Part shown: piece after piece, positions 14,619 through 38,600 of the stretch
How the letters are laid out: each line of letters starts with the position of its first letter
Position numbering within the stretch: the first letter of the stretch is position 1
Assembly: GCF_007747995.1 (NCBI RefSeq)
Contig: NZ_CP036276.1
Coordinates: 1,169,001 to 1,233,000, forward strand
From: Symmachiella dynata
Lineage (GTDB): Bacteria; Planctomycetota; Planctomycetia; Planctomycetales; Planctomycetaceae
Direction: 5' to 3'
Length of the DNA: 64,000 nucleotides
Translations under genes and position numbers: made by a program
Notes under the pieces: model-generated
Told to the model about the DNA's origin: nothing
Databases searched by the model: none
What the model saw: only the letters and a program-made list of their open reading frames with translations

Positions 14619-15290
14619 TCAACTCGTTTTTCGTTGACGAATATGTCTTAGCGATAATTCTGCGACATCCCATTCATCATCGCGTGAAGATGGTGATACC
14701 GCCCAAAGGAAAAGACCTGTAAAGCCACCGACGACCGGCCAAGCCCCCCAACCCGCGTTCACCGCCCCATCGCCACCTGCAAGTGCCATCCCAACGCCAG
14801 CGCCTGAAAGAAAACCTGCTCCAGCGCCCCAACCGGCGCCATCCCAACCACCCCACAAATACCCCAAAGAGCCACCAACTAATGTACCAATTGCCATCGA
14901 TGTCAGAAGTGAACCAACATTGAATGCTCTAAGGCCAGTCGGATCCCACCCATTCACCGGGTCCCCATGCGTATACAAATACTTATGCAGCGACTGCGGG
15001 GTACGCAAATTGCCAGAGAACGGGTCGAGGTGGTTAAACCGCCCAGAGTTCGGATCATACCATCTGGCCCGCAGGTATTGCATCCCAATCCGGCTGTCGA
15101 AGGCTTCGCCGCTGTAGAGTCGGGTTGTCAGGGCGGCTGCTTCGTCGAAGCCGATCGCCCGGCCGTAGGCGGTGTCGGCGTAGTGCTGCACGAACGCTGC
15201 TGTTGCGTCGAGGACGGTGTGGGGGTTGTCGTGGGTGTTGGGGCGGAGCGTGCGCGGGCTGGTTGTTGGGGGGGCGTCTTACGTGTGATG
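14619..15290 (-). pseudogene. Decayed third RHS tip (RHS core remnant plus Gly-rich C-terminus)
   Basis: The frame from GTG 15191 (190 aa) matches the end of the RHS core in its neighbours almost residue for residue: YSGEAFDSRIGMQYLRARW, then YDPNSGRFNHLDPFSGN, and the terminal DPTG at 14935-14946. After DPTG it diverges completely into a 105-residue, Gly/Ala/Trp-rich tail with glycine-zipper spacing. Upstream, recognisable but degraded core DNA continues to about 15290 with many substitutions, including loss of the DGHGSTRA block, and then vanishes. No immunity-like gene follows; the convergent MBOAT gene ends 24 bp away. I read it as a silent remnant of an older toxin cassette. Whether the 190-aa frame is expressed is unknown. 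Confidence 0.65.
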
Positions 15291-15502
15291 CTGTGGGAAA
15301 AACGAACCTTTGGGCCGACTTCAGTCACATTCCATCTCACCGGACGTCACAACAGGGTCCAGCGGCTCGTTGTCTGCAGGGCGGGCGAACTTGTCGTCAC
15401 GGGTGACTCGGGGCGGTTCTCGCTGGGCCAATGAAGTTGGTGGGTGGTTTTGCCGAAATTTACTGGCTATTTGCAAACCTCTCACACGGATGCGCACGAC
15501 GA

Positions 15503-16198
15503 TCATTTGTGTTCATCCATCCATTTTTGAATCGCCTTTAACTGTTGTTGAACTTCAGGCCGTTCAAAATACTTGTTCTTAATTAGATATCGTTCATCCA
15601 TGATCTCCTGAAACGGCCTCCCTCCACAAAGTGCATTCTGGTAATCTGCACCACTTTCAAGAAGAAGTAAAACGACTTCGTAATCGTTTTGTAAAGTGGC
15701 TACCGTTACCGGAGGACAGTCCAAGTGGTCTGGTTTATTGATATCAGCACCGTATTGAATCAGGAGTTTGATATTGTCGATGTGGCTGTTGGTAATGGCG
15801 AAATGAAATGGAGTCCCTTCAAAGGGAGACCCAGAACCAATGTTGACTAAGTTTGGATCGGCTTCATGCTCCAATGCTAGTTTTAACCATTTAGGATCAT
15901 CTTCTATAGCCGCCCAATGTGTGACAACGCGCTGCTTGCTCATAATGAAATTTGGATCCGCACCGCACTTCAAAAGCGCTTTATAGCTCTCGAAATGTTT
16001 CGAGGAGAGCGCGAGGAAAAGTGGTGTCTCTCCGCCGAAATTACGGATGTCAAGGTCGCCACCCGCATTGGAATAGGTTTTGATGGCCGCCGCATCGTTT
16101 TGTTCAACAGCGTCCCAAATATTGACGCCCCCAGCAGACCCGCCACAGCCTATCATGAATACATTAACCAAACCCAGCATGAATATTGTGCACTTCAT
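15503..16198 (-). CDS. Ankyrin-repeat lipoprotein, probable immunity protein for the lipase-tipped RHS cassette
   Basis: ATG at 16198 is preceded by GGGGTG and starts a lipoprotein signal peptide ending FMIGC. GTG at 16204 is the alternative. The mature part carries four or five ankyrin repeats (NFGGETPLFLAL, LLKCGADPN, LALEHEADPNL, EGTPFHFAI, LLIQYGADIN, LLLESGADY). It lies about 30 bp downstream of the RHS-lipase gene in the same direction. Ankyrin proteins are established immunity partners of some polymorphic toxins, and a lipid anchor would place this one at the membrane, where a phospholipase acts; that pairing is inference. The start of the gene is intact and its reading frame shows no damage, in contrast to the degraded cassette downstream. 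Confidence 0.7.
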   Translation of the reverse strand: MKCTIFMLGLVNVFMIGCGGSAGGVNIWDAVEQNDAAAIKTYSNAGGDLDIRNFGGETPLFLALSSKHFESYKALLKCGADPNFIMSKQRVVTHWAAIEDDPKWLKLALEHEADPNLVNIGSGSPFEGTPFHFAITNSHIDNIKLLIQYGADINKPDHLDCPPVTVATLQNDYEVVLLLLESGADYQNALCGGRPFQEIMDERYLIKNKYFERPEVQQQLKAIQKWMDEHK

Positions 16199-16230
16199 AT
16201 TCACCCCATGATTACCTTGGACTCAATGGA

Positions 16231-18606
16231 TTACATCATTTTTCGCATCCCCGAAAGTACTTCAGGCATTCCGTGGCGCATCGCTAATGAGAAACTATCG
16301 CCTTCCAGCCAAAATGGCGTTCCGACTGAATTTGGCATCAGCCCGCCAAGGACTCCGGCCAGAGCGATTCCTTGCTGTCCCCAAACAGCTGCACCGGCCA
16401 TAGCAATACTTGTGTCTTGAAGTGTGGAAAGAATGTCGCCTTGGACACGATAGGCGTGCACTCTTTGGTTGACACCCGCGGTATTGGCACTGGGGTACAT
16501 TTCTGCAAAATTGGCATTCAATCCGGACGCGTTAAAGGTTGTGGCAGGCCTGTTGTAAACAACCGCAGCTGCCGTCGCAAGTCCTCCTCCCAGTGAGTGA
16601 CCAACAAAACGATCAACCGAGCCATACTTGCTTTCCCATATGTCGGCAATTTCGATTGCCTGCGCGTATTGAAGAGAGGCTCCAAACAATCCTTGAGAAA
16701 TGTTGTTGATCCAATCTTGCCTGTCTTTGGGGTCAGTTCCAGCATAGGCAATCACGCGCTCGTTACCTCGCTGAAAAAGACGGGCACGAAAGCCAGTTGT
16801 GCCGTCACCTTCGTTATCATCAAGGGCAACCCACCCGGGTACGTCGCTGCGGTCATATGCGGCGTCTGCTAGCAGGGCATACTGATAGTCTTCTCGAACC
16901 TTCCCACTGTCAAGTGGAGTGATAAGTTGCGTGAATTTAGTTTGGAGCTTCAATACGGCATGAGCGTATGCAGCATGCACCGCCACCTTGAATAATCCAC
17001 GAACCGCCGCGCTAATGATTGCCTTGGCCCCTGTTGAGATTGCAGAGGCCATTGCTGACATGTTAACCTTTAGCCCTAATATGCTAAATTCCAGCCCAGT
17101 CGGATCAATCCCATTCACCGGGTCGCCATGCGTATACAAATACTTATGCAGCGACTGCGGGTCTCTCAAATTGCCAGAGAACGGGTCGAGCCGATTAAAC
17201 CGCCCCGAATTCGGATCATACCATCTGGCCCGTAGGTATTGCATCCCAATCCGGCTGTCAAACGCTTCCCCGCTGTAGAGCAGCGCCGTCAAGGCCTGTG
17301 CTTCGTCGAAGCCGATGGCCATGCCGTAGGCGGTGTAGGCGTAGTGCTGCACGAAAGCCGCTGTCGCGTCGAGGACGGCGCGGGTGCTGCCGTGGCCGTC
17401 GTAGAGCAGCGTGAGCGGGCTGCCGGCCTCGGTGCCGCCCGGCGTGAACGTCGTCTGGTCGATCACGTCGTGACCGAGCGTGAAGACTTTCGCATCGGTG
17501 ACATTCGCCGTGCCAGCTTCGCGGACAATTTTCTCGATGACCTGGGCATACCCGGTCGGGTTCATGTCGTCGACGAGGTAGGAGGTCTCCTCGTGCTTTG
17601 TCACAACCAGCGCAGTTGCCGGGTTTTGATCGGTGTCTTCCTCAACCTTGTACGTCGAACCGACACGGATGCCCCTGCCGTCGTAGACGTAAGTCGTCGT
17701 CTCCTTCTTCACGATGTCGCTATTACTGTCATAGGTGTCGATGACCACCTCGGACATGCGGCCCTGCAAGTCGTAGCTGTAGTCGACCACGCTCAGTGTC
17801 TGCGTGCTATAAGTCTCCTCGATAGTTTTCGAGGTTTGCAGCGTACCGGTGTAGCCGTAGGTCGTGGTCGTGTCATCGGTTTCCAGATTCACGCCGTCGT
17901 CGACGTCGCCGATGATTTTCCAACTGGTCAGTAACCGGTCATTATCGTCGTATGCATACGTCAACGTCTTATCAACGATCCCATCGATGACTTTCGACAG
18001 GCGATTGCCGACGAGGTCATAGGTAAACGTCGTCGTGTAATCCAAATCATTATTGTGGCTGTCGTAGTCTTCTTCGACCAAGCGGCCGAGGTTGTCGTAG
18101 GTCCAGGCGATGTCGGTGGTGTAGGCCGTGCCGCTTTCCCAGTACTTCTCGGTGACAGCGGTGCGACGGCCGTCGGCGCGGACGGTGTAGTCGTACTCGG
18201 CCAGTTTGTCGTTGTCGGCCAGGTTCTCCGGCGTTTCATCCGGCGAATAATGCGTCATCACGTCGAGGCGATTGAGTGCATCGTACTCGTACGTGGTGAT
18301 CATGCCATTAGCGTAATCGACGCGGGACAGGTTGCCGACAAGATCGTAGCTGTAGGTCGTCACCTCCGCCGTGTTCAGGTCGACGCCGTTGCGGCGGACG
18401 GTGCTGACGGTTTTTAAGCGGCCCAGCGCATCGTAGCTGTAGGTCCAATCGTGCGTCGGGTCGGCCGGGTTGCCGATCGATTTGCGGACCTGCCGGCCAT
18501 AGTTATCGTACTCATAATTCAGCACACCCTCAGGCGTATCGATTTGGGCGAGGCGGTCGAATTCGTCGTAGGTAAACAGCGTTTCGCTGCCATCGTTGCC
18601 GGGCAC
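16231..18606 (-). CDS. Orphan RHS cassette with class 3 lipase toxin tip
   Basis: The 791-residue frame has no signal peptide and opens with GTG nine bases after the preceding immunity-like gene. It contains only the last part of an RHS protein: YD-type repeats, then the RHS-associated core (YLRARWYDPNSGRFNRLDPF) ending at DPTG (17095-17106). It aligns along about 1.5 kb with the end of the giant neighbour but starts abruptly. After DPTG comes an Ala-rich linker and a lipase_3-like domain: RVIAYAGTD, DWINNISQG, and the nucleophile elbow GHSLGGG near residue 670. The expected toxic activity is phospholipid or acyl-ester hydrolysis. With no ribosome site seen at the GTG, it may be silent until recombined onto the complete RHS gene, or be translated by coupling. 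Confidence 0.75.
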   Translation of the reverse strand: MPGNDGSETLFTYDEFDRLAQIDTPEGVLNYEYDNYGRQVRKSIGNPADPTHDWTYSYDALGRLKTVSTVRRNGVDLNTAEVTTYSYDLVGNLSRVDYANGMITTYEYDALNRLDVMTHYSPDETPENLADNDKLAEYDYTVRADGRRTAVTEKYWESGTAYTTDIAWTYDNLGRLVEEDYDSHNNDLDYTTTFTYDLVGNRLSKVIDGIVDKTLTYAYDDNDRLLTSWKIIGDVDDGVNLETDDTTTTYGYTGTLQTSKTIEETYSTQTLSVVDYSYDLQGRMSEVVIDTYDSNSDIVKKETTTYVYDGRGIRVGSTYKVEEDTDQNPATALVVTKHEETSYLVDDMNPTGYAQVIEKIVREAGTANVTDAKVFTLGHDVIDQTTFTPGGTEAGSPLTLLYDGHGSTRAVLDATAAFVQHYAYTAYGMAIGFDEAQALTALLYSGEAFDSRIGMQYLRARWYDPNSGRFNRLDPFSGNLRDPQSLHKYLYTHGDPVNGIDPTGLEFSILGLKVNMSAMASAISTGAKAIISAAVRGLFKVAVHAAYAHAVLKLQTKFTQLITPLDSGKVREDYQYALLADAAYDRSDVPGWVALDDNEGDGTTGFRARLFQRGNERVIAYAGTDPKDRQDWINNISQGLFGASLQYAQAIEIADIWESKYGSVDRFVGHSLGGGLATAAAVVYNRPATTFNASGLNANFAEMYPSANTAGVNQRVHAYRVQGDILSTLQDTSIAMAGAAVWGQQGIALAGVLGGLMPNSVGTPFWLEGDSFSLAMRHGMPEVLSGMRKMM
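17095..18606 (-). repeat. Duplicated RHS core segment (second copy of about 19708-21200; third partial copy 14935-15290)
   Basis: The three stretches encode the same succession of RHS motifs, ending at the same DPTG codons, and share long DNA stretches. By eye the two downstream copies are closer to each other (for example the string encoding LHKYLYTHGDPVNG) than to the copy in the giant gene. Such homology could support cassette exchange by recombination. Confidence 0.8.
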
Positions 18607-18615
18607 GCCGCGAGT

Positions 18616-19038
18616 TCACGGCGAGAATGCGATAATAACTCGGACACGGTCTGGTCCGTATGTTTCCGCAAGCAATCCAACCACGGAGAAAAGCACAGCA
18701 ATTGGCTTAGGCAGTTCTTGCTGCTGCAGGCCAATATGTTCAATTGCATTTACCAATTCGTTGCCATCAAACCAAGTCATATAGTCGTCGTCAAACCACG
18801 CGTTACGAAGATCTGAAGAATCGGCGATGAACTCCGGAAACCCCCGTAACTCATACAGTGGTATTGGAAACTGACGGCTGGGATCGTAGCCAAACGCGGC
18901 AAATAACTTGGCATTGTGACATGTGATGATTCCGTAATCCTCCGCAAGCGACCACAATGACGGATCAAATGTAAATGTTTCCATGTCATGGGGTGTATTG
19001 TCATCTATCGCAATATATATAGTAATCGCCACACTCAT
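18616..19038 (-). CDS. Probable immunity protein for the giant RHS protein's C-terminal tip
   Basis: The 140-residue protein is not one I recognise. It is acidic, soluble and without signal peptide or membrane segment, with aromatic-rich stretches (FDPSLWSLAEDYG, AWFDDDYMTWFDG). Its ATG at 19038 overlaps the stop of the giant RHS gene by one base (TAATG on the minus strand), an arrangement typical of translational coupling. It lies exactly where polymorphic toxin loci place the cognate immunity gene, between the complete toxin and the first orphan cassette. I therefore infer that it neutralises the tip encoded at 19041-19707. A cytoplasmic immunity protein fits a toxin acting on a cytoplasmic target. 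The role rests on context only. Confidence 0.6.
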   Translation of the reverse strand: MSVAITIYIAIDDNTPHDMETFTFDPSLWSLAEDYGIITCHNAKLFAAFGYDPSRQFPIPLYELRGFPEFIADSSDLRNAWFDDDYMTWFDGNELVNAIEHIGLQQQELPKPIAVLFSVVGLLAETYGPDRVRVIIAFSP

Positions 19039-22000
19039 TATCTTGGTCTCCAGCCTTTTAAAGGAACAATTACCATCCGCACGTTCCTAAACTGCCTTTG
19101 TAGCATTCGTAATCCTAGAACGAAATCGGGATTTTGATATATTCCTATTCTCGTTTCAGGGATACCGAACAACACAACGCGCGACCCCACTTGACCTGGC
19201 ATCAATGCTGGTACTCTCGCACCAGGATTGGGTTCAAATTGCCGGTTAGTCGATATTCTGCGAGCTTTTGTACCCATCTCTTTCAATGCCCGTTGGATAA
19301 ATTTTTCTTCACTCATGAGTGGGTCGCCCCCTTTTGAACCAAGACTTACCACAGTATAACGCCCTTTGCTGTCCAATTCGCGATGATCAATGGATTGGTA
19401 GTCGGTTCCATTTGCACCCGTGACTTTTTCGAAGAAATTGCCGCCGTTGCGATCTGTGTGGGGAAGTTCATTTTCAATAGATTTTGTAACAGCTTTGTCA
19501 ACCCAGGATAACCCTGCATCAGCCACAGTTAATCCAAAATATGCAAACACCAGTCCCATCTCAACCTTCCAGAGATGGGCATACACGAGATACTGGACAT
19601 TGAGTGCAGCGGCTGCTGCGACCGGCAATATAGTACGGCCAATTGCCACACCGGTTAGGAACGCATTAATTGCCAATGCCTTAAGTCCAGTTACTAAATT
19701 GGCCATACCAGTTGGATCAATCCCATTGATCGGATCCCCGTGCGTATACGCATATTTATGCAACGACTGCGGGTCATGCATATTTCCCGCAAAGTCATCC
19801 AACCGATTAAACCCACCAACACTTGGACCGTAATACCGGCGCCGTAGGTAGTCCCACCCAATCCGCACATCGTGCAATTCTCCGCTGTACTGCAGCGCCG
19901 TCAACGCCGCCGCCTGATCGAAACCAATCGGCAGACCGTACGCCGTGTAAGCATAACGCTCCAGAATGGCAATCGCGTCGTCGACGACTGCTCGCGTGGA
20001 GCCGTGTCCATCATAGAGCAGAGTCAGCGCGCTGCCAGCGGTTTGCGTGCCGGGGACAAACGTCGTTTGATCGATGACATCGTGGCCCAGCGTGAAGAGT
20101 TTTGCGTTGGTCACATTCTGCGTAGCAACGTCACGGGTGATTTCTTCAACCACCTGTTCGTAGCCGGTGAAGTTCATTGAATCGACGAGATAGGACGTCT
20201 CTTCGTACTTCGTCACGACGAGGGCCGTATTGGGGTTTTGATCGGTATCCTCCTCAACTTTGTAAGTCGCCCCGCGACGCATCCCGTCGTAGCCATAGAC
20301 GTACTCGGTCGTCTCCCGCTTCACGACGTCGCCATTACTGTCGTAGGTGTCGATTACGACCTTCGACATCCGTCCTTGTAGGTTGTACTCGTAATCGACG
20401 ACCGACAAGGTCTGCGTGCTATAAGTCTCCTTGACGGTTTTCGACGTCTGCAGCGTTCCGGAATAACCATACGTCGTAGTCGTGTCGTTGGTTTCGAGAT
20501 TCACAGCGTCGTCGACTTCGCCAATGATCTTCCAGCTAGTCAGCAACCGGTCGTTGTCGTCGTATTCGTACGTCAACGTTTTATCAATGATGCCGTCGAT
20601 GACTTTGCTGAGCCGATTGCCGACCAAGTCGTATTCAAACGTTGTCGCGTAATCCAAATCATCGTCGTGGCTGTCGTATTCCTCCTCGACGAGGCGATTC
20701 AGTGCATCGTAGGTCCAATTAGTCGTCGTGACATACGGCGTCGTGCTGTCCCAATAGGTCTCGGTGAGCGCGGCGCGGCGGCCGTCGGCGCGGACGGTGT
20801 AGTCGAACTCGTACAGTTTGGCATTGTCCGACAGGTCGAGCGGTGTGCCATCGGCGTCGTAGTACGTCAGCACGTCCAAGCGGTTGAGCGTGTCGTATTC
20901 GTAGAATGTGATCATGCCGTTGGCATGGTCGATTCGCTGCAAGTTACCGATTGTGTCGTAGCCGTAGGTCGTCACCTCCGGGGTCGAGAGGACTTCGTCG
21001 TTGCGTTCGATCGTCTTGACATCCAGTAAACGGCCCCAGGCGTCGTAGGTGTACTCCCAATCGTGTGTGGGGTCGGCGGGTGAGCCGATGTAGGCCCGCG
21101 TTTTGCGGCCCAGCGCGTCGTATTCGTAATTGAGCGTCCCTTCGGGCGCATCGACCTGCGACAGACGGTCAAACTCGTCGTAGTCAAATTCCGTCTCCCC
21201 GCGACCATCGGTCACGGACGTCTGTCGGAATTCGTCGTCGTAAACAAACGCAACCACTTCATCCGCCGGATCAATAGAAGGATCATCACCCGGTTCATAA
21301 TACCGCAATTCATCCAGGAAGCCCAGATCGGAATAGACCGACTCGGTGAGGTTGCCTTCGAACGACGTATGCAATTCCCGCCGGCCGTATTCATCGTAGG
21401 TGAAGTATTCCGTCTGTCCCAGCGGCAATTCGCGGGTCACTTGTTGGCCGAATTCGTTGTAGGTAAAGGTCGTTTCGCGTCCCAACGGATCGCGGATTAC
21501 GGTTTGGTTGCCGTAATAGTCGTATTCGTATTCGTAGCGCGGGTTTTCGAGTTGGTCGGTGGCGGGGTTGATCACCGCCGGGAGGACGACGGCGGTCAGG
21601 CGGCCGTGCTGCGGATCGTATTCGTAGGTTTTGGTCTGCCCCATTTGGTCGGTTTCGCCGACGACGCGGCCGAATTTGTCGTACGTTGTTTCGACAAAGG
21701 TGCCATCGTCGAACGTCGTGCGGTCGGAGCGGCCGTATTCGTCGTAATGGGTCAGCGTATAACGGCCGAGGGCATCTTTGACGGCTGTTTGGCGGCCAAA
21801 ATCGTCGTAGGTGTATTCGGTTGAGCGCGATTCGCTGCCAGCGGTCTCAGTGATTTTCTTAGTGCGGCCAAAGTCATCGTATTCGTACGTGGTGACAACA
21901 CCCGTGCTGCCAGTCGTACTCAATAGCCAACCGCTGACGTTGTCGTACGTGCTGGAAGAAGAGTACAGCAGTGTGCCGAGCGTATTGAGGGACGTGGTCG

Positions 22001-25000
22001 AGTCGCCGCTCACCGTGTCGACGTCAATGACCATTCCGTCGTAGCGCTTCGACTCTACCACCCGATCCAGCGCATCGTAGATATAGTACGTCCCCTGCGT
22101 GTCATCGGCCGGCAGGTGGCGGTCGGTGGTGTAGACCGCGCGGCCTTTGGCGTCGTAGACGGTGCGGGTGATCGTGCCGTCGCTGTAAGTTGTCTGGATG
22201 TTTTGACCGCGGGGGTCGTAGAGCATCGTGGTGGTTTGGTCGTCGTTTTCGGCCGAGGTGCTGTCGTCTTCGCCGATGATGCGGGTGGTGCTGAGGACTT
22301 GGCCGGCGACGTCGTAGGTGGTGGTCGTCGTATGGCCCTGCGCGTCGGTGTGGCTGATGAGACGGTTGTTGTCGTCGTAGCTGCTGCTGGTGGTGAGGGT
22401 GACGGTGTTCTCGGCATCATTGGGGTCTTGCCAGAGTCGGCTGGTGCCGATTTGGTTGCCGTAGTCGTCGTAGGTGAAGCGGTTGGTCCGATAGTTGCCG
22501 TCGCCGGCGTTGGCGGGTGTGGACCATTGGTCCCAGTTGGTGGTGGAGATCAGGTTGCCTTCTTCGTCGTATTCGAAGGAGACGGCTGTGTTGTCGGAGG
22601 GACCGTGGTAGTCGTCGGTTTTCCAGGGGGTGACGATGTAGCGAACTTGTCCGTTGTCCGCAGCATTGGTACCGACGCCGTAGTAGATTAGTTGGGTTCG
22701 GTTTTCGAGGGCGTCGGTGAGGTAGAGCGGGCGGCCATATTCATCGACGACGGTTTCGGTGGTGTTGCCGAACGGATCGGTGACGATCAGCGGCGTGCCG
22801 GTTTCATGGTTGACATAGGTCGTCTCCAGACCATCGGGGGTGATGACGGAACTGACGAAGCCGTTGGTATCGTAGGTGTAGGTGGTCAGCAGGTCGTTGG
22901 TTTCTTCGCTGACGGTGTCCTCCAAACCGATGACCATAATTTCGGTGAGCAGGTTGTCATCGTCGTCGAAGGTCCGTTTGGTGATGCCGCCGAGGGGATC
23001 TTCCTCGCGGATGATATTGCCGCGGGCATCGAAGGTGACGGTGCTGGTGTAATTGAGTTGATCGGTGATCGTCTGGGTTTTGTTGCCGCTGTCGTAGGTG
23101 TAGCTGATGGTCTGGCCATCGGCATCGGTGACGGCCTCGACGCGGCCCCGTTCATCGTAAGTGGTCGTCGCAGCACTGCGGCCGAGGGGATCGATGATTT
23201 CGTCGAGGTAATGCTCGGGATCGTTCGGGCCGTCGAGGTAGGTGAATTGAGTGGTAGCACCGGTGCGATCGGTGACGGCGATTAAATTGCCGGTGTCTTC
23301 GTCGTAGTCGTACAACAAGAAATTGCCGACGTGGTCGGTAATTTTTGTGATGCGGTCGGCGTAGTCATGCTCAAAATCAACGCCGCGACCATTAGAACTT
23401 TCGATGCCATCGCCGGTGAAGTACAGGGCGTTACCGTAGCGGTCGTGGATGCTGGCCAGTTCGCCGCTGGTGGCGTTGATCGTTAACTCCACACCGGTCC
23501 GCAGGCGCAGGACGTAGGCGTTGCCGAATTCTTCCAGGGCGGGGTTGTAGGCGAGCCCCTGCTTGCTGTGGTCGACCCACTCATCGCCAGCCTGCTGGAG
23601 GTGGACGTCGGCTTCATTGACGAACAGTTCGCTATCGACACCAGCATCGGCAACAAATTTGGGTTTGTAGTCGTAGGCAATGATACCGTAGGAAAAGGCC
23701 GGTTCGGCGTAAAACGTGAAGCCCTCGGTCGTGCCGTCCGGAAGCGTGATGACGACGCGGTCGCCGTTTTTGAAGGGGGTGTACGGTCCGTGGTTGGAAA
23801 GCCCTGAGTCGGCGTGTTCGACGTTGACGGACGTATTGGCAATATCGAGGCTCCAGCCGTAGCCGAAGTCGCCCTGTTCACCAGCGTCCAGCGTGCTGTA
23901 ACTGCGGGTGATGGTGATCGGGAAGCCTGGGGCGGGGATTTGCATGTCGAGGAACGAAATCGAGAAGGCGCCCAGTTTCAAATTGCCTTCCACGGTGACC
24001 AGTTTGTTGTCGGTCGCGGTGTTGCCACCGGCATCAACAGCGGTCAGCGTCAATCGGTAGAGGCCATTGGCAATGGCGGTGGTGTCGAAATTGCCAAGCA
24101 GGGCAGGCGTGGTGATTTCATTGCCGCCTGTGGCGAGTGTAAATTCACGACCGGAATCAATTGCCGTGGCGATCAGTGTCCAGTAGACGAGATTGTCATC
24201 CAGATCGTCGACGGTGCCCAGAATGTCGGTCGGCTCGGTCAGTTCCTCACCGCCGGTAATTGAAGTGATGGCGACCTCCGGGGCGGTGACATCACCGGGA
24301 TCGATGACCGTGAGGTTGTCGACAACGATTGTTTCGTTATCGACAGTGTCGGTGGCGGTGACGGTCACGACCAACGGATCAAGCGACACGACGTCGTAGA
24401 CGGCGTTTCCATTGGCATCGACCGCCACGTCCACGCCGTTGATGTCGAGCGTGATTTCGTCGACTCCCACGTCGTCGACGGCTTGGATATAAATCGATAG
24501 CGGCGTCCCCAACTGGGCGGGATCGTGCGAGTAGGTGACGTCCACCACTGGCGGTGTATCGTCTGCAGCGACCGTCACATCAAACGTGTCGGTGTTGTAC
24601 AGTCCGAACTCATCGGTGACGGTGACCGTGATGTTCGCGTGCGCGCCAATATCACCGATGGCCGTCTGCCATTCAATACGGCCCGTGTCCGCATCGATCG
24701 TCATACCGGTTGGCTCACCGGAGATCGAATACGTCAGCGCGTCCCCGTCCGCATCGGCGGCCGAGACGTCGTACTGATACCCGTTCCCGGCGGTGACGGT
24801 CGCGTCGGGGATCGTGGTGATCGTTGGGGCCGTGTTGTCTCGGATTGATATTCCCAAGTATTGGGTGTCAGTGTCGTTGCCGTCGGAGACAATCACCTCG
24901 AAGGTATTCAAGCCGGTCTGCCCCGAAGTCGGTGTCCAGGAGAGCAGCCCTGTGTCGGGATCGATCGACATGCCGATCGGTGGGGTACCGCCGAGCGAAA

Positions 25001-28000
25001 ACTCCAGCGTGTCATCTTCCGGATCGGTGGCTGTGACTTGATAGCTGTAAGCCGTACCCACCATGCCGGTTAATACGGCTGTGGAGGTGATCTGCGGCGG
25101 CAGATTGGCGGCGGGTGCGAAGATGGTCAGGTCGTAATCTTGATGGACCGCGTAGCCCGCAGGATCGGCGACGGTCACGACCACGTCGAACGTCCCCTCG
25201 CCGGTGGGGGTCCAGGTAAGGACTCCCGTGTTCGGGTCGATCGTCATGCCCGATGGTCCGTCGCTCAGCGAAAAGGTTAGCGTCTCCTCTTCAGGATCGG
25301 TGGCCGTGACGTTGTACGTGTAGTCCTCGTCTGAATGGCCGGAGGCGGGGGGCGTTGACGTGAACTGCGGTGGCAGATTGTTATCCACTACAGCGACATG
25401 GATTTCTTGCAGAGACCAGGCACCATGCGGATCGCTGACAAGAATCGTGGCCGACACAGTGCCGATTTGACTCGCATCGGGCGTCCAGAGCAGTTCGCCG
25501 GTCGTCGGGTTGATCTCCATGTTGGCGACATCGGTTTCCAGCGACCACAGTAGCGTGTCGCCGTCGGGATCGGTGGCGGTCGCCTGATAGGTGTACTGCT
25601 CCCCCACAATCGCCAGACTGCCAGCCGTGGAAGTGATGTGCGGTCCACCATTTTGATTCGAACCGCCACCGCTCGTCGGAGGAGCAATGATTTCGAGGTC
25701 GAACGTTTCGCTAGCCGAGAGACCGTACTGATCAGTGACGGTGACGGTGATGTCAGCGTACGTGCCGATGTCATCGATGGTTGTGAGCCATTCGATGTTG
25801 CCGGTGAACTCATTAATCGTCATCCCGGCAGGTTCGCCAGATAGTTCGTACGTCAATGCATCGCCGTCTGTATCGCTGCCATAGGCCCTGAATTGATACG
25901 TCTCGCCAGCTGCGCGGGTCAGGTCGGGGATCGGCGCAATTGTGGGTGCAGCATTGTCGCGGACGCGCAGGTCAAAGCTCTGGACGTCACCAAGGCTCCC
26001 GTCAGAGGCAATTACCTCCAGAGAATGTGTCCCGATCTGTCCCCCATTAGGCGTCCAAGTGAGCAGTCCCGTGTCGGGGTCGATGGACATTCCGTTCGGC
26101 GGCGTGCCCGCCAGAGAATACTCCAGCGTATCGTCGTCTGGGTCGGTGGCAGTGACTTGATAGGTATATTCGCTGCCGACCAGCGCGATCCAATCCGGGG
26201 TGGAAGTGATTTCCGGTCGCCCATTTGTGGCAGCGGCGGTGATCACCAATTGATACGTCTGTTCGGCCGCCAAGCCTGAGGGATCGGTGGCGGTGACGAT
26301 GACTTCTGACGTCCCCGTTGCTCCCGGTGTCCAGGAGATCACACCGGTGATGGGATCGATGGTCATCCCGGTTGGCTCATCGAGCAGCGCGTACGTCAGT
26401 GGATCGCCGTCGGGATCTATCGCGTTGGCGGCATAACTATAGTCGTCCCCCACACGGCCGGACGTGATCGGATCTGTCGTAAACAGTGGCGTCTGATTCG
26501 TACCGACGACCGAAATCAAAAATGTCTGCTGCGACGAGGCACCAAACGGATCTCTCGCGCGGACCTTGACCTCGACATCACCGATTTGATCTTCGTCGGG
26601 ACTCCAGGACACTAAGCCGGTGTCGCGGTCGATCTGCATGTTGCGGACTGAGGAATCTAGCAACCATTCCAGCGGGTCGTGGTCGGGGTCGGTGGCGGTC
26701 GCTTGGTAGAGGTACAAGTTATCGACGACTGCCGTGTAACTTGGCGTCGACGTTATGTAAGGATACGAGTTGATGGACGGCCCGCCACCATCACCGCTGT
26801 TACCATCTCCACCATCGTCCGCTGCCGGCGGGACAACGTCCAGGTCGAACATGAGCGTATCGTACAGACCAAACGGATCGGTGACGGCAACGGTGATATC
26901 CGAATGCAAGTTGATATCATCCAGAGTTGTCTGCCAACGAATGCGGCCTGTGCCAGCGTCGATTGTCATATTGCTCGGCGCGCCGAGCAGTGAATAGGTC
27001 AATGCGTCACCATCAGCATCGGTTGCCGAGACGTCGAACTCGTACAACTGCCCGGCGGTCAGCGTTCCATCGGGGATGGCCGTGAGCACCGGTGCAGCGT
27101 TGTCGCGGACGGAAATCTCAAAGGTTTGATCGTCAGAGTCAGTGCCGTCAGAAACGATGACTTGCACCGAGTGCTCCCCGGTCTGTCCTGCAGCGGGAGT
27201 CCAAGTGAGCAGCCCCGTGTCGGGGTCAATCGACATACCGATCGGTGGCGTGCCCCCCAACGAATAGTCCAGTTCGTCTTCATCGGGATCGAAGGCGATG
27301 ACCTGATAGCTGTACGCGGTGCCCACCATCCCGGTCTGTTCAGGATTCGAATTGATTTGCGGCGGCAGGTTCGAGGCCGGTGCATAAATCGTCAGGTCGT
27401 AAGTCTGATAGGCGTACCAACCAGACGGATCGGTGGCGGTGACCGTGACGCTGTGGCTGCCCTCCGACGAGGGCGTCCAGGAGATGACACCCGTGTCGGA
27501 ATCGATCGACATCCCGGTTGGCGGATTATCCAATGCATAAACGAGCGTGTCTTCGTCCGGATCGGTCGCTTCGACGTTGTAAGTGTAAGCCTCACCTGAA
27601 CGGCCGGATTGGGGAGGATCGGATGTGATTTCCGGCGGGTGGTTGGAATCGGACACTGATATCACAAACGACTGTGTCGCCAAGCCGCCGAACGGATCGA
27701 TCACACGGATCGTCACTTCCGTGTTGCCGATCTGACTCGCATCGGGCAGCCACAGCAATTCGCCGGTCGCCGGATCGATCTCCATATTCGCCACATCACT
27801 GTCGAGTGACCACAGCAATTGGTCACTATCGGCATCGGTGGCGGTCGCCTGGTACCGGTATAACCGATCCACAATCCACACCTTATCCGGCGTCGACGTG
27901 ATTTCCGGCGAATGATTGACCGACGTCCCGTCATCGTCGACCAGAGGCGCCACGACGTGCAGGTCGAAGGTCTGCTCATCATAGAGGCCGCGGGCATCGG

Positions 28001-31000
28001 TCGCACGGACCGTGTATTGATGTGGTGCGGAGACGGCATTGACGTCCTCTAGCCCCGGCAACCACTGCACCATTCCGGTGGCCCCGTCGATCGTCATCGT
28101 GCTCGGGCCATCGATCAACGAATACGTAATCACTTCCCCTTCGGGGTCGCTGGCTGTGATCCGTGTCAGGAAAGTCTGATCGGCGATGGTATGTGTGCGG
28201 GGGGTAGAAAGGATCGTGGGGGCGGTGTTTGACCCGGTATCGATCACCGGCAATAAGAACATCTGCTGGTAGCCGTGCCCGGCCAGGTCATACACCGTTA
28301 CGACAAATAAATTGGTACCCGTTGCAGTGGGAGTCCAACTGAGCAGGCCATCGGACGCACCAATTGTGGCGCCGTCCGGCCCATAAGTCAGTTCATACTC
28401 CAACACATCGTTCGGCAAATCGGGATCGCTGGCTGTGAGTTGGTAGGTCCATTCGGTACCAACCGTCGCGGAGAGATTCGGTGAGGACGTAATAATAGGT
28501 AGCCCTGCTTGCAGATCGACGATAAATTTTTGCAGAGCAATTCCCCCACGACCATCGGTGACACGCACGGCCACATGATGCTGGCCCGCAATCGTATCGT
28601 CGAGATCGCTAAAACTGGGGACCCACGAGATCAGCCCGGTTACCGGATCAATCGCCATGCCGTCGGGGGCTAAAGCCAACTCGTAAAGGAGCGGGTCAAG
28701 GTCCGCGTCGGTTGCCTGGACGTCGTAGGTGTATTGGATACCCAGCATTGCCGATGTGACGGGCGTGGAAACGATGACAGGGTGAGCGTTGTCCAGAGTT
28801 TCAATAATCGTGGGAACGACCACCGTGATCGAGACGGTGATTGAATCAATCCCACCTCGGCCGTCGGCAGCGCGGATCACAATGTCATACTCGCCCGCCT
28901 GCAGGACATCGGGCGTCCAACTCACCACTCCGGTCAGCGGATCGATCGTCATCCCGGCTGGTTTGGCGTTGGCCGATCCCGGAATATCCAGAATCTGATA
29001 CTGCAATGCATCGCCGTCGACATCGCTTGCCACCGCCATGAACTCAAACGGACGTCCGGATTGGATCGTGAATGGTCCGGCTGATGCAAGTACCGGCGCA
29101 GTGTTACCGCTGGTCGTATCGCCTACGGTGACCGTCCAGGTCTGTAGATCGCTGCCGCCTCGCCCATCCTCGACGAGCGCCGTGAATTCATATTCACCCG
29201 TCACCGTCGGCGCCCAGCGCAATAGCCCGGTCTCGTTATCGAACGTCGCACCATGCGTCTCGCCCACGAGCGTGTAGGTCAGTTCATCGTCATCGGGATC
29301 GATGGCATCGACGTCGTAGAAGTAATCCACCCAGATTTCGGTGGGAATCGTCCCCACGACCACCCCTGGATTGTTTTCCCGGACGAACTGCAGATCGAAC
29401 GCGTGGGGATTGCCGTCACCGGTGATTCGGACGTCAAAATCGAACGACGTCCCGTTGTAGGTTTTAGTGAGGATTTCAAATTGAACATTCGGATCGGAAG
29501 CAGTTAACGTGACGTCCAAATCCTCACTCACATCGCCGCGAATCACATCAGCCAGCGCCGCAATGAAGGAATTGACTTCATCCGGCACGCCCCATTCCAA
29601 CGTCAACCCATCCCAGACGGTGCCGTCTGCATCAAAGGTGAGGTCAATGTATTCTGTCTCGATCGCCCAAGACGTCGAGAGGTTGGGAGCGGTGCCGCTC
29701 GTGACCGTGTAGTCGCCACCGGTTCCGATCCAGTACATATTGTCGGCAGCGGTGTCACCGTCGGTACCAAGCGCATAGGGACCGCTACCAGGGACTTCGT
29801 TCAGTATCACGTCGAGCAATGAGTGCAATGAAGCATCGTGCTCATCGAGTTCATCCAAAATTGTGTTGTAAGTCAGGTTCGCATCAGTGGTGTCGCGATC
29901 TTCATCGGTGATCAACACCAATTGCCGTGAAACCTTATCACGGAAATTCAGTCCATTGAGCGCCGTATGAATTGCCTCGTATCCGTCTTCAATCACACCC
30001 TCAGTCTTCAGTCTTGATGTCATGTCATCGACATCCTCCGCGTCCGCCCAGGCGTCCAACCGCAACACCATCTTCTGGCCGGCCGTCCCGCTGAAACGAT
30101 AGAGGCGATCTTCATCCGTGGCAGTAAACACTGAAGACGTTTCGTCGTCTAACACCAACTGCGACTGCGTCGCTTTATCTAACACGCGGAAGCTGTAAGC
30201 CCCGGTTCCACCCGCCGCATCGCCGACCAATAGGGTGTACGTCCCGGTTGTGGCCAGTGTGACCAGCGGGAACTTCGTGTAGTCCGACTCTTCACTGCGC
30301 GATTCGGACAGCAATAAATTGCCATCAGCGTCACGCAGCCAAAGCGTCATGTCGGTCGTGGCGCCGCTGAGCCAGTCGAGGAACAACTCCTGTCCGGCCG
30401 TCCCGCTGATCGAGTAGACATCGAACGTGTCGGCCGAATTGATTGTGCCGCTGGTCGTTGAGCCCAAAGTCAGCGCCGTCGGCGTCCCGCCTTGCGATAA
30501 CGTGGCGTCGAGCGTATAGCTTTGCGAGGAGGCGGTGTCGCTGATGTCTCCCTCGATCAACAGGTAGTATTCGCCGTGTGCGGTGATTGAGACCGTATCT
30601 TGTGACGCGGAGATCAGGCCGCTGTCTATCACAGTTCCATCCAAATTGACCACCCGCCACTGCGAGCCGGACGGACCGCTGTAGGAGCTGACATCGATCG
30701 TCAGTGTGTCACCCGGAATCGCCTGGAAACGATAGACATCGGTCGAATTCCCAGCGGAAAGAGCATCACCCGTTGTGCCCAAAAAGTCGCTGGCAGCGAC
30801 GTCAGCCAAATTCACCAGCCGCAGATCATAGTCACCCGTCGCGGAATTCAGGCTGAGAACGTCGAGGACGTATGTCCCTGCACTCAGATCCAAAACTGCA
30901 TTGGCGTCGGACACATCATCCCCATCGGATGCCGTGAACAGTCGCTGCGAGACGATCGTGCTGCCGCTGCTGTCAAGCAATTGCCAGGCAAAGTCCGCCT

Positions 31001-34000
31001 CGTCAGTCAAGGCGTCGAAGTACAGGAGTGCGTCCTCGTCGAGCGTGAAGCCATATCGGTGCGTTTCATCGGCAGCCAACGTCCCATCGGTCAGACTTCC
31101 CACGGTCGCTAATCTGAGCGACTGCACTTCAAAGCTGTAGGTACGGCTGGTGGAACTGTCATCGGTCCCACCTTCGATCAACAGTGCATAATCGCCGGTT
31201 TGAGTGATCACGTACACCGGCAAATCGGTCAAGAGTCCGTTGGTCGAGAGCACGCTGCCATCGGGGCCAATCAGCCGCCAGCGGGCACTACTTTGCGCCG
31301 CGGATGTCAGTGCATCAAACGCCAGCACGTCTCCCACAGTAGCAGAGAACGTATAGGAGTGTGTCTCCCGTGCAGAGTTGAGCGTCCCGTTGACGACCGT
31401 GTCGAGCGTCAGACTGGAAACGCCGGAGAGTAAGGTGCTATGAATGTCGACGACACGGAATTCGTAATCGTTTAGGCTGGAGTTGTCGATCGTGAGGTTG
31501 TAACCGCCTGCCGATAAGTCAAACACCAGCGGATCGGGATCGCTACCGCTGTAGCCACCGGCGTTTGATTCTTCCAACCAGCGCGAAGAGACAAACGTAC
31601 CATCGGCCCCTTCCAACGTCCAGGACATGGTCTGGGTTGTGCCGCCGGAAATCTCTTCCGTGACATCGAAATAAACCAACGCATCGGCCGAGAGCGTGAA
31701 ATTGTATTGCCCGCTGGTAAGGTTGTCCGAGACGGTTTGATCCAGTGAAATTGCCGTTCCGGAGAGCGAATAGGTCCCCGATTCGACGGTGAATTGATAC
31801 TGAGGCTGCGAGGCGGGGTCGTCGACGTCCCCGTCAATAATCAGCACGTAATCGCCCACCGCCAGACTAACCAACGACTGCGTCTCACTGAGCAATGCGT
31901 TGAAGACTTCCGTGCCGGTATCATCCACGAGTCGCCACCGCGCGGCGGCCGATCCATCCCACGACTCGGCGGTAAAGTCATATCGCGCGGCCGTGCTAAT
32001 CGTCACCGTGTATCCGACCGACTCGCCGACCGGATCGAGCGTGCCCGACGTTGAATTCCCCAGTGTGACTGACGTAGCGGCCGACAGGTCAACTAAACGG
32101 AACTGATAATCCTCGCTGCGAAAACCGACGGCCTCGATCGCCAGCGTATAGGAACCGCTGTCGAGGGATAGCACCGAGTCCGGTTGATCTAATGACCGGT
32201 CACTAACCACAGCACCAGCAGGACCGGTTAGAGACCACTGCAGCTGATCGTTATTCGCCAGGGCGTCAAATAGCACCAGCGTGTCGTCCGCCGCAATCGT
32301 AAATGTGTAATCATCCTGCGCCGCATAGGTCTCGATTGTACCGGAGTAGCTGGTCCCCAGCGTCAGACTTTGTGTGCTGACGTCCTCCTCGACTGTCTCC
32401 AGTACGAAACTGTATTCCGTCGCGGTCGAACCGTCTGTGTTCTCCACAACGACCGAGTATTCGCCGCTGCTCGGCAGTTCCCAGCCCGCTAGTGCAGATG
32501 AGAACAATTCCCTTTCTGGAACCCAGACCGACTTCACCAACGCGTCATCCGGGCCGTAAACCGAGACGCGGAATGGATCGTCGACTGTGGACAAGACTGC
32601 GGAATCAGCCGTAAAGCCGACGATGGCGAAGCGGTTTTCAAAATAACCGGCCGCTTCTAGTTCCGCATTGAGCGCCTCCGCGATCTCGTCCAACCACGCT
32701 TGCCCACCCGTCATCGACACCGATTCATCCACGATCAACACAATATCGGCTGAAAAGTTCCCATCATATTCGTAATCCAGCGAAACGATCTGCTCCGATA
32801 CCTCGCCAGCCGACAGGTGCAATTCCAATTCCGTCGGGGTCACGTCGCCGGTCGCCGTATTGCCGCTGAATCCGGGCAATTCGAAGGTCAACTGCGGATC
32901 GCTGATGATAATTGGATCGTGATTGCCGATCGCCTCGTGCACGGCAATCAGGTATTCCTGCGTCGCCTCATGTCCCGCGCCGCTTTCGCCCGTTTCCGTC
33001 ACCTGCAGCGTGACTGAAACCAATGTCCCCACCAACGAGACGTCAGTCACGTCCCAACTGATCGCGCCGGTGTCCGCATCAATCGCCATCCCCTGCGGCC
33101 CATCAACGAGTGAATACGTCAAGTCGTCGCCGTCGGGGTCGCTGGCATCGGAATCGTAGAAATATGTCGTGTGCAAATATGCATCGACGATCGGAATCGT
33201 CGTAAATAGCGGCGGGCGATTGGGAACGTTCTCACTGACCGACAGCGTATACGTCTGCAAGTCGTAGCTGCCCAACGGATCGGTCGCCTGCACGATGACC
33301 ACATGCCCGCCCACGTCGCCGGACGTGGGACTCCAGGTGATCATGCCGGTCTCGGCATCAATCGCCATCGTGCCTGGTCCGGAAAGAATCGAATACGTCA
33401 CTGCATCGCCGTCCGGATCGACCGCCGCCGCGTCATACTCGTACGACTCGCCGGCGACGACTTCCGTTACGGGGTCACTGACAAATTCCGGCGGCTGATT
33501 TAAATCGGCCAGGATCTGCAGTTCATAGTTGAATTGCACCTGCTGCGGATTGTGGAAACGCAGCGCCAAACCCGACAGCGCGGCCGCCGGATCCAGCATC
33601 CCGTCTTCCATAAGGTGCGTGACGTCGAAATACGCGTAGCCATTGGGCGTTAACCCGTCGTAACCGGTGGCTTGTACGCGAGGATTATCGATGTGATGCA
33701 CGGCCACCAACAGCGGCCCGCGGATCGGCGAGATTCCGTCATTCGTCAGCGTCAGACCGGTAAACAGCGTGTCGCTCGATTCGTCAAACGACGTCACCTG
33801 ATAGTCCCACGACACTGCTGCCGTCACATCGACCATATGGTCGAAATCGATCGTATTGGGCGCGTGACCGTCGCCGGATGGGGATGTCAGACTTGGATTT
33901 GCAACCGGTGATGTCGTGAGAATCGTCGGATGCACGTCGACTGAAACTGTCGATGTGGAATCGGCGTCATTATTCACCAACCGCACTGCCAGCGTCGCTG

Positions 34001-35654: not shown

Positions 35655-38600
35655 TTCCCCGACTGAAACCCAAACTGATCACCCGCACCAGCCGTGAATT
35701 CGTAAACTGCCGTACGATGCGACGCGGCGAGCGCTCCCGTCACATCGCTCCCGGCTGTGATCGTTGTTGCCGACGACAGGTCCAAGACCGCGAACGCATA
35801 ATCCCCCGTGATCCCGCTGTCGGCATCGATCGTCAGCGTATAGGTCCCCGCCGAGAGGCTCAGCACGGCATTTGCATTACTGACTCCCGACGCGTCCGAA
35901 GCATCCAACGCGCGACTGTTGACGATAGTCCCGCCGCCATCGGCCAACGACCAGTACATATCGTCGCGACCGGTCAGCGAATCGAACGATACTAGTGCCG
36001 CTGATCCCAGCGTGAACGTATATTCATCTTCTTCCAACGACGCGCTGATTTCGCCACTGACGACTTGATTGAGTGCTAGCGGCGCTGGATCGGACGTGTC
36101 GCTCCCTTCATCCACCACCTCAAACGAAAACGCAGGGTTGCTCGTGGCATCATCGATCGCCCCTTCCAGCAACAGCGTGTAATCTCCCGCTGCATGGACG
36201 TGCAGGGTTGGCACGTCGTCACCAATCGCGGCACTAAATAATTCATTACCGAACGGGTCGATCAGCCGCCACTGCGCCGCGGCTGAACCAGCCCAGGAGA
36301 TTGCATCAAACGAATATTTATCCCCCGCTGCCGCTGTGAACTTATAGGCGGCTGAACTGCTAGCCGGATTGAGGTTGCCGCTCTCTGTCGAATCGACTGT
36401 TAACGACGTCGCTGACGCAAGGTCCAGGATTTGGAAATCATAAGCCCTGGTCGCATCCCCAGGAGGATCGATCGACAGCGTATACGTCCCCGTTCCCAAT
36501 CGCAAAACGAGATCAGACGCATCCAGAGGTACGTCCGCAATCACCGTCCCTGCCGTCGCTTCGCTGAGAGTCCAGGCCAAATCGCCATCATCGGTCTGCG
36601 AATCGAACGCCAATAGTTCGTCGCCGGTCAAAGTGAGCGTGTATTCATCCGCCTCACCCACTTTGGAAATTGAGCCGCTGTAACCCGTGCCAAACGACAA
36701 TGCCGTCGATAAGGTCGCGCCAAGACTTTCGACCGTGAAGCTGAATGCCCGCGTCGAAGCCGTGTCCGCCACGTCACCATCAACAACCAGATAATAGGTG
36801 CCAGTCGAGGAGGTCGTCAGCGGGTCGTGATCCTCAGAAAGCGATTGCGAGAACAGTTCCGTGCCCGAGGGATCAATCAATCGCCACTGCGCTCCGGCGG
36901 GCAAACTGGAACTCTGGCTGTTGAAGTAATACCGGTCCCCTGCCGTTGCCGACAGTTCATACACCAGCGAATCGGTCGCCGGATCGAGTGTCCCGTTGAT
37001 CTGTGTCCCAGCCGTGATGGAAGAGCCGGACAGATCCAGCAACCGAAACGCATAGGTCCCAGTCGCCTCCGTGGGACCATCAACGGTCAGCGTGTAACTG
37101 CCACTCTCGCCGTCAATCTTCAGACCTCCCGCATCGAAGTCGCGATCCGTCACGACCGCACCGGACGGCCCTGTCAAAGACCAGCGCAAATCGGTGTCGG
37201 TCGTAAGTGACTCGAAATACAGCGTGTCGCTACCGCTGAGGCTGAATGTGTACTCGTGTGTTTCACTGTCATTTTGAATCTGCCCAGCGGTCAATTCATC
37301 CAGCACCAGCGCTGCCGAACCTCCCACAGACGATGCATCTTCCAGCACGAAGCTGTAGTCGTAACTGCTCGTACTGCCGGCATGATCGACGACGATCGTG
37401 TAATCTCCCGACGCGGGCAGCGTAAAGCTCCCTTCAACTAGCCCGGTTGTCGAATCAATTGCCAACTGCTGGCTTTCGAGTTGTATACCATCCGGACTAT
37501 AGATCGTCACAATCACCGGTTCGGACGTCATGGAGAAGAGGGTTCCCTCTTCCAAGTAGCCGACAAGCGCATATCGATTGCCGGTCACTCCGTTAGCATT
37601 GAGCGACGCATCCAATGACGTCACCATATCGCCGATCCAATCATGCTCCTTGTCCATCGACCCAGACTCGTCGACAATGAACACGACATCTGCCGTGGGT
37701 GCGTACTCGTCGTCAAACGAAAGCGTCACCGTGTGCTCCGACTGCTCTTGCGGCAGCAGGTTGACTTCGATCGATGTCGGATCGACATCGCCGGTCGCCG
37801 GGTTTGTAGCGGGCAGTTCGCCACCACCGATGATTTGTACACCGTCATCCAATTCGACGTCGTCGTTAATGATCGTCGACGTGACCAGGATTTCGCTGAT
37901 CTTCGCACTACCCGATCCGCTGACCTCTGCGTTATGGATTGCGACGCTGTATTCTTTGTCCGGTTCGGGATCCGCATCGTTGTCGATCACGACGGTGAAG
38001 TCCAAACTCGTGTCGTTCCCCGTCCCGCCGCTGAATGTTAATGTCGTCCCAGAAAGAGAAATGCCCGTTGCACCGCTGACCGCCGTCGCCAGCGCCGCAG
38101 CCACCGTCGTGTCGTAATCGGCCACGTCGGTGTGTCCCAGGAGGTGGGCCACATCGATACTGGCCGTTTCGCCGGTTGCCAAGGCACCGGTATAGCCGAC
38201 CGTGTAGGTGATCGAGTTGCCGTCGCCGTCCGTGGGATCCTCAGTGACCTTCAGCGCCGAAGCGCTGATCGCAAATTCCACGTCGTTGTTAACGATAGTT
38301 GTGGCAGCCGTTGCCGTCTCGATCGAAGCGGCCCCTGAACCGGTCGTCACGGCATTGCTCAATGTGACGCTATACGCTTCTTCCTCTTCCGCAGCCGCAT
38401 CGTCATTAACCTCGACCGTAAAATCGAGGCTCTTCGACTCCGAACCGGCATTGCTACTGGTGTAGGCGACCTCAATATGTGCCGAGTAGAGCTCAAAATC
38501 ACCGTCCCGCAATTGCACGATCAGCCCGAAATCCGATGTATTGAGCTCAGCGGCCGTCCAGGTCGTCCCCCACAACGCGGTGGCATCTCCCAGTACCACC

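What the first reader, a model, noticed from the sequence alone, without database searches (positions are those of the whole stretch)
15503..18606. Lipase-tipped RHS cassette paired with an ankyrin lipoprotein
The GHSLGGG nucleophile elbow gives a predicted phospholipase toxin. The next gene is an ankyrin lipoprotein that would sit at the membrane where such a toxin acts. The cassette itself has no signal peptide and no visible ribosome site, so it may be a silent reserve while its immunity gene is kept intact.
Basis: partly seen in the sequence, partly recalled or inferred. Interest (0 to 1): 0.72.

Follow-up and report, generated by a model that had tools for sequence, protein, structure and literature searches.

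The report
Displaced lipase toxin with ankyrin antidote
A bacterium, probably a planctomycete, carries the cut-off end of a giant surface toxin, a predicted lipid-cutting enzyme, next to an intact membrane-anchored antidote; toxin and antidote resemble a pair already known from another secretion system, but here they sit on a different carrier.

Summary
ORF 16231-18606 (-) is an RHS core fragment ending in an alpha/beta-hydrolase tip with an intact Ser-Asp-His triad; 15503-16204 (-) is a six-ankyrin-repeat protein with a lipobox. The tip is a homologue of Tle, the Enterobacter cloacae T6SS phospholipase (PDB 7ubz/9cys; E 2e-20), named Tle6 in 2024, whose immunity protein Tli is likewise an ankyrin lipoprotein. 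Of 80 related lipases, 66 have a same-strand ankyrin gene within about 2.5 kb. Toxin-immunity pairing is well supported, and its kind is known.

What differs is carrier and activation. The genome lacks two T6SS markers. The core fragment is 91% identical to the core of the intact giant RHS gene of a sister species, while the adjacent carrier here has a foreign core end, tip and immunity gene: the cassette is the displaced former end of the carrier. Residues of the Tle6 cross-link are absent. 'Silent reserve' is weak: 72% identity (longest exact run 27 bp) to the adjacent core, and the carrier is itself frame-broken. An immunity bank fits better: 5 of 10 judgeable close ankyrin places have no lipase. 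Delivery, expression and activity are untested.

The parts
17092..18606 (-). RHS core fragment, read as the displaced former end of the giant RHS carrier
   Evidence: Rhs_assc_core; 90.7% DNA identity over 1,489 bp to the core of the intact carrier of same-genus G001 against 72% to the adjacent carrier
16231..17091 (-). Lipase tip (Tle6-like alpha/beta hydrolase), 286 aa
   Evidence: phmmer to 7ubz_B/9cys E 2e-20; AF2 model pLDDT 82, Foldseek top hit 9cys_A E 1.2e-11, VIA Z 20.4, rmsd 2.8 over 188 residues
16594..16596 (-). Catalytic Ser671 codon (GHSLGGG)
   Evidence: aligns with Ser341 of Tle
16435..16437 (-). Catalytic Asp724 codon
   Evidence: aligns with Glu393 of Tle
16273..16275 (-). 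Catalytic His778 codon
   Evidence: aligns with His448 of Tle; invariant in 46 sequences
15503..16204 (-). Ankyrin-repeat lipoprotein, Tli-like immunity protein (start GTG 16204 or ATG 16198)
   Evidence: Pfam Ank; AF2 pLDDT 91.5 with six helix pairs; lipobox MIGC by eye; adjacency conserved
15262..15483 (-). Spacer between ankyrin gene and next core fragment, repeated at other tip modules
   Evidence: copies of 78-86% identity at two places of L005 and in G001 C2 (two) and C4 (partial)
14619..15191 (-). Second orphan: short RHS core fragment plus short hydrophobic tip
   Evidence: Rhs_assc_core E 1.6e-15
18616..19038 (-). Immunity-type gene of the current carrier tip, unknown family
   Evidence: position only; no Pfam (E 0.1), NCBIfam (0.01) or PADLOC (0.1) hit
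19038..19703 (-). Current tip of the carrier, family not identified
   Evidence: follows the last DPTGM of the core
19704..22090 (-). Incoming (foreign) core segment of the carrier
   Evidence: identity to the G001 carrier drops from 83-97% to 59-81% at about 22.09 kb in 150-column blocks; BLAST puts the edge at 21.66 kb
19038..35654 (-). Giant RHS carrier, downstream frame (5,538 aa)
   Evidence: in G001 one 7,495-codon frame spans the counterpart of both frames
35624..40690 (-). Giant RHS carrier, upstream frame (1,688 aa), separated by a frame break near 35.66 kb
   Evidence: window copy is 70 bp shorter than G001 there, not a multiple of three

Best explanation
The cassette is an effector-immunity module of the Tle6/Tli kind that used to be the C-terminus of the neighbouring giant RHS surface protein. 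An incoming module (new core segment, new tip, new immunity gene) recombined into the carrier at about 22 kb and pushed the old end, core plus lipase tip plus ankyrin gene, downstream. While it was the carrier's tip, the lipase would have been delivered to neighbours and would have cut membrane phospholipids; the ankyrin lipoprotein, anchored at the membrane, would bind and block it in kin cells. Cut from its carrier, the lipase has no export route of its own, while the ankyrin gene can still protect the cell against relatives that keep the lipase tip. Shown: homology, triad, pairing, displacement of the core relative to a same-genus genome, open immunity frame, constraint on its relatives. 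Inferred: enzyme activity, binding, surface location and delivery, present protective role.
For: Tip homologous to Tle (E 2e-20; Z 20.4). Tle's immunity protein is an ankyrin lipoprotein with six repeats that cups the lipase (PMC11470151, passages); the window protein models as six repeats. Pairing: 7 of 8 lipase places in 197 own and related genomes have an ankyrin gene beside them; 66 of 80 loci in GTDB contigs have a same-strand ankyrin ORF within about 2.5 kb, 89 of 89 ankyrin ORFs lie on the lipase's strand, 84 of 89 in the inner 347 kb against 5 in the outer 700 kb. Full-length version: in G026 a related lipase ends a 7,964-codon RHS frame with the ankyrin gene next. Displacement: orphan core 90.7% identical to G001's carrier core, about the level of the rest of the carrier (92% and 90%), while the carrier's present core is about 71%. 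Constraint: dN/dS 0.069 orphan core vs G001 core, 0.22 ankyrin vs own paralogue, 0.27 between two syntenic solitary ankyrin genes.
Against: No lipase match in G001, so that the lipase itself was the carrier's tip at this locus is inferred from the continuous reading frame. 14 of 80 lipase loci show no ankyrin gene by this test, some of them near contig ends, and G044 has none. The ankyrin fold match to Tli is no better than to generic ankyrins (Z 19.9 vs best 21.0; profile search likewise). A simple pattern found a lipobox in only 30 of 57 partner ankyrin frames (starts not trimmed, so misses and false hits are likely). The low dN/dS of the orphan core may mostly date from before displacement.
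Confidence: 0.8

Rival explanations
1. Silent reserve: the cassette is kept so that recombination with the adjacent carrier can put the lipase tip back into use, as shown for the Salmonella orphan Rhs.
For: Layout is of the same kind as the Salmonella orphan (PMC3967940, passages): core fragment, tip and own immunity gene downstream of the main gene; frame open, core conserved.
Against: 72% identity over about 1.5 kb with the adjacent core, longest exact match 27 bp, against 522 bp at 95% in Salmonella; the carrier has a frame break, so a fusion would still lack a continuous carrier.
Confidence: 0.12
2. The orphan is still translated, by re-initiation after the gene 18616-19038, and acts as a separate lipase kept in check by the ankyrin protein.
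For: Start GTG lies 9 bases after the stop of the preceding gene in the same frame; strong constraint on the core.
Against: No signal peptide or Shine-Dalgarno seen (by eye), no promoter above chance; an anchored ankyrin lipoprotein would not meet a cytoplasmic lipase, although E. cloacae also makes a cytosolic form of Tli.
Confidence: 0.15
3. The ankyrin protein is not immunity; lipase and ankyrin protein merely sit side by side.
For: 5 of 10 judgeable close ankyrin places have no lipase near; ankyrin repeats bind many things.
Against: 66 of 80 lipase loci have one near, one strand in 89 of 89; lipase and ankyrin distances correlate (rho 0.53 over 52 pairs, 0 of 999 permutations; shared ancestry not removed); solved Tle-Tli complex.
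Confidence: 0.05

Closest known systems
Tle/Tli of Enterobacter cloacae (Tle6 group), PDB 7ubz and 9cys, PMC11470151
   Same: Lipase fold and triad positions; ankyrin-repeat lipoprotein encoded next to it; six repeats
   Different: Carried on an RHS core; genome without TssC or TssK-type match; Asp for Glu in the triad; no equivalents of Glu458 and Lys461 and no recognisable Arg180, so the methylglyoxal cross-link cannot form in the same way
Orphan rhs-CT/rhsI modules of Enterobacteriaceae (Jackson 2009, PMC2935791, abstract; Koskiniemi 2014, PMC3967940, passages)
   Same: Displaced core fragment plus tip plus immunity gene in an array behind the main gene
   Different: Other phylum, carrier of over 7,000 residues, low identity between orphan and present core
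Tox-ABhydrolase-3 of polymorphic toxins (Zhang 2012, PMC3482391, passages and one section)
   Same: GHSxG hydrolase close to lipases, found on RHS proteins
   Different: In the table rows seen it is listed with Imm66 and Imm69, and Imm-ank with Tox-AHH; no sequence comparison with that family was made here
Immunity gene arrays of Vibrio cholerae T6SS (PMC5361080, passages)
   Same: Effector displaced, immunity gene retained
   Different: T6SS effectors, not RHS

Membership tests
Tle6 phospholipase effector | Sequence and fold homology to E. cloacae Tle lipase domain | tested here: met
   E 2e-20; Foldseek E 1.2e-11, TM 0.51/0.53, rmsd 11.9 over 295 columns; VIA Z 20.4, rmsd 2.8, 188 aligned, next row 17.0
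Tle6 phospholipase effector | Ser-Glu-His triad | tested here: met
   Ser671, Asp724, His778; Asp in place of Glu
Tle6 phospholipase effector | Encoded with an ankyrin-repeat immunity protein | tested here: met
   ankyrin gene next to it; immunity function itself untested
Tle6 phospholipase effector | Delivered by a T6SS | tested here: not met
   No TssC (PF05943) or TssK-type (PF05936) match in the genome; E. coli control rings in both; only these two markers searched
Tle6 phospholipase effector | Arg180-Lys461 AGE cross-link with Glu458 | tested here: not met
   Lys461 position is the last residue, Met; Glu458 position is Arg (ungapped from the catalytic His; model residue 286 is the one aligned with 461). 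Arg180 region not reliably alignable
Tli immunity protein | Secreted lipoprotein with six ankyrin repeats | tested here: met
   lipobox by eye, hydrophobic N-terminus, six helix pairs in model; secretion not tested
Tli immunity protein | Specific relation to Tli beyond the ankyrin fold | tested here: inconclusive
   Z 19.9 to 9cys_I/7ubz_A, close to unrelated ankyrins, best 21.0; profile search ranks 7ubz_A below many other ankyrins
Tli immunity protein | Binds and neutralises (and activates) the lipase | not testable with these tools
   needs binding and activity assays
Orphan RHS tip module | Truncated core continuous with tip, immunity gene next, behind a full RHS gene | tested here: met
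   the RHS gene in front is itself frame-broken
Orphan RHS tip module | Long near-identical stretch with the main gene that allows recombination (as in Salmonella; not required of every orphan) | tested here: not met
   72% identity, longest exact match 27 bp

The most novel reading that the evidence does not exclude
Tle6-type lipase/ankyrin pairs are shared cargo of two unrelated delivery routes: the T6SS, and giant RHS surface proteins in planctomycete genomes without T6SS markers. In the latter the lipase must become active without the AGE cross-link, so the ankyrin partner's activating role would be confined to the cross-link subgroup (17 of 85 lipases carry both residues by simple motif).
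Probability: 0.45. Interest if true: 0.6.

Novelty: new variant of a known kind. Interest (0 to 1): 0.42.

Why it matters
It puts a recently described T6SS effector-immunity pair on a different carrier, in genomes where two T6SS markers were not found, and shows the displacement by comparison with a same-genus genome. It also bears on a possibility raised in PMC11470151, that all Tle6 lipases are subject to AGE cross-linking: the residues are missing here, and by simple motif both are missing in 52 of 85 lipases counted, the window's included.

Tried and rejected
Housekeeping lipase: disfavoured by the conserved ankyrin pairing. SA1320 family (NCBIfam): hits residues 616-760 with E 7e-15 but 54.5 bits against a cut-off of 230. 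Dot/Icm-type ankyrin effectors: NCBIfam hits far below cut-off, taken as generic ankyrin similarity. Defence system: PADLOC hits for the ankyrin protein only (PDC-M72A E 7e-17, 'Ankyrin' E 2e-7), taken as generic. A first thought that the spacer also follows the solitary ankyrin gene of G001 was wrong: what they share is an intergenic hairpin-like stretch. No Rfam family at gathering score in 14.0-22.5 kb. A LEPR-XLL-like N-terminus of the carrier ('LEDRTL') is recalled; no such NCBIfam model hit it.

The ankyrin profile was built from nine planctomycete proteins and can match any ankyrin protein; 'within about 2.5 kb' means match start from 2.6 kb before to 2.3 kb after the lipase. Cross-link tally: 17 both, 13 Lys only, 3 Arg only, 52 neither, of 85 (80 loci, four G loci, the window); partial frames are included, and the Arg motif in L054 may be spurious. 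RHS-fused frames, 7 of 80, were counted by motif, some cut at locus ends, so a lower bound. For structure prediction, 11 of 80 loci lacked the exact motif and 3 more failed the length or N filter; of the 66 lipase ranges left, 45 went into A2 with the window tip; of 57 ankyrin ranges, 28 went into A3. dN/dS values are pairwise counts by my own script.
Full report
What is there. On the minus strand, in order of transcription: a giant RHS gene in two overlapping frames (35624-40690 and 19038-35654), an immunity-type gene (18616-19038), the cassette (16231-18606), the ankyrin gene (15503-16204), a spacer, and a second, shorter core-tip piece (14619-15191). The cassette's GTG lies 9 bases after the stop of 18616-19038 and in its frame. 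Its first 505 residues are RHS core, ending in DPTGL; the other 286 are the tip. The host is probably a planctomycete: G022, of the same family, has a contig of the same length (10,821 bases) and the same lipase as a record titled Planctomycetota bacterium.

The tip. Pfam alone is weak (Lipase_3 E 0.025, below its cut-off). A sequence search of the PDB gives one strong hit, the E. cloacae T6SS lipase effector Tle (7ubz/9cys), E 2e-20, aligned over the Ser, acid and His positions; the only other hit has E 0.087. The AF2 model has pLDDT 82, with blocks of 55-71 in residues 1-60 and of 59-72 at 121-140 and 221-250. Its best match is the same entry by Foldseek (E 1.2e-11, TM 0.51/0.53, rmsd 11.9 over 295 columns) and by VIA (Z 20.4, rmsd 2.8, 188 residues, next 17.0). 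Tle has phospholipase A1 and A2 activity; its ankyrin-repeat immunity protein Tli is a lipoprotein, and a cytosolic form is needed for an Arg180-Lys461 methylglyoxal cross-link that activates the enzyme; [quoted passage not shown] PMC10294624, part 1 of 2).

The pair. The window's ankyrin protein models as six repeats (pLDDT 91.5). In 197 own and related genomes, 7 have a lipase match at E<=1e-5 (8 places, two in the own genome); an ankyrin gene lies beside 7 of the 8, not in G044. In 80 loci from GTDB genomes, 52 have a same-strand ankyrin ORF from 100 bases before to 800 after the end of the lipase match, 66 within about 2.5 kb either side, 14 none; all 89 ankyrin ORFs are on the lipase's strand; 84 lie in the inner 347 kb and 5, all in the tandem arrays of two loci, in the outer 700 kb. 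Distances of lipases and ankyrins correlate over 52 pairs (rho 0.53; 0.39 among divergent pairs; 0 of 999 permutations each), with shared ancestry not removed. A simple pattern finds a lipobox in 30 of 57 partner frames.

Ankyrin without lipase. Of 11 ankyrin places at E<=1e-30, 5, the window's own included, have a lipase. In the own genome's second locus a gene that looks by eye like a transposase lies between two lipase pieces while the ankyrin frame is open; in G022 the lipase has an in-frame stop. Five have none by tblastn or profile in the stretches fetched (10-19 kb); one starts 48 bases from a contig end. Two of the solitary ones, own genome 6.86 Mb and G001 3.18 Mb, are syntenic at 91-92% DNA identity with dN/dS 0.27. 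They look like kept immunity genes.

Displacement. G001, of the same genus, has the orthologous carrier as one 7,495-codon frame. Window 21.7-35.7 kb matches it at 92% and 35.7-41.1 kb at 90%; in 150-column blocks identity falls from 83-97% to 59-81% at about 22.09 kb. The cassette's core (17085-18573) instead matches G001's carrier core at 90.7% over 1,489 bp. So the orphan core looks vertically inherited and the carrier's present end foreign. The lipase itself is not found in G001, whose carrier has another tip. In G026 a related lipase ends a 7,964-codon RHS frame, with the ankyrin gene next. In G022 the order core fragment, lipase, ankyrin, core fragment is the same as here. Jackson et al. 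describe tip displacement for enterobacterial rhs (PMC2935791, abstract); V. cholerae immunity arrays are read in a similar way (PMC5361080, passages).

Silent reserve? Identity to the adjacent core is 72% with a longest exact run of 27 bp; in Salmonella the recombining stretch was 522 bp at 95% (PMC3967940, passages). The window carrier is 70 bp shorter than G001's near 35.66 kb, which breaks the frame; an assembly error cannot be excluded. The two immunity-type frames are open. An immunity bank is the better description, though expression was not tested.

Delivery and activation. No TssC in the own genome; of eight genomes, no TssK-type protein in G000, G001, G022, G026, G044 and G083, but one each in G080 and G087. 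So some relatives with such a lipase have a T6SS marker and some do not. The window lipase ends at the position of Lys461 with Met, and has Arg at that of Glu458. By motif 17 of 85 lipases have both cross-link residues, among them an RHS-borne one from Vibrio cincinnatiensis (L102).

In print. Searches: ankyrin, phospholipase, immunity protein, lipoprotein and type VI secretion together give 7 papers; Tle6 with type VI secretion gives 1; Rhs, lipase, ankyrin and immunity give 8, of which I read passages or sections of five (PMC3482391, PMC8285248, PMC11481896, PMC11470151, PMC10294624) and saw three as listing only. Searches on planctomycetes with RHS or polymorphic toxins were seen as the 12 and 10 papers listed. 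In what I read, RHS-borne lipase-like tips are known (Tox-ABhydrolase-3), ankyrin immunity is known, and their pairing on an RHS carrier is not described; most subscription papers are not in the library.

Noticed in passing
window 35624-35658: The giant RHS carrier is split in two frames; the window copy is 70 bp shorter than that of same-genus G001, whose frame is open throughout.
   Followed up: partly
L005:6980-11430 (G000:C1 2.76 Mb): Second lipase-ankyrin module in the same genome, with a transposase-like gene (by eye) inserted in the lipase and the ankyrin frame open.
   Followed up: partly
L004:13710-14189: A macro-domain-like gene lies just upstream of the solitary ankyrin gene at 6.86 Mb (name by eye, no family search).
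   Followed up: no
L078, L072: Tandem arrays of six and five ankyrin genes behind one lipase in Dickeya oryzae and Oceanospirillum beijerinckii.
   Followed up: no
window 15262-15483: A 220-bp spacer is repeated before core fragments in this genome and in G001 and may mark the boundary of tip modules.
   Followed up: partly
window 19641-19697 and 14619-14930: The current tip and the second orphan tip begin with a hydrophobic or Gly-zipper-like stretch after the core (KD19 1.74 and 1.37; Gly-zipper model just below its cut-off), as a membrane-crossing segment might; for the lipase tip the signal is weak (1.31 against 1.28 in the rest).
   Followed up: partly
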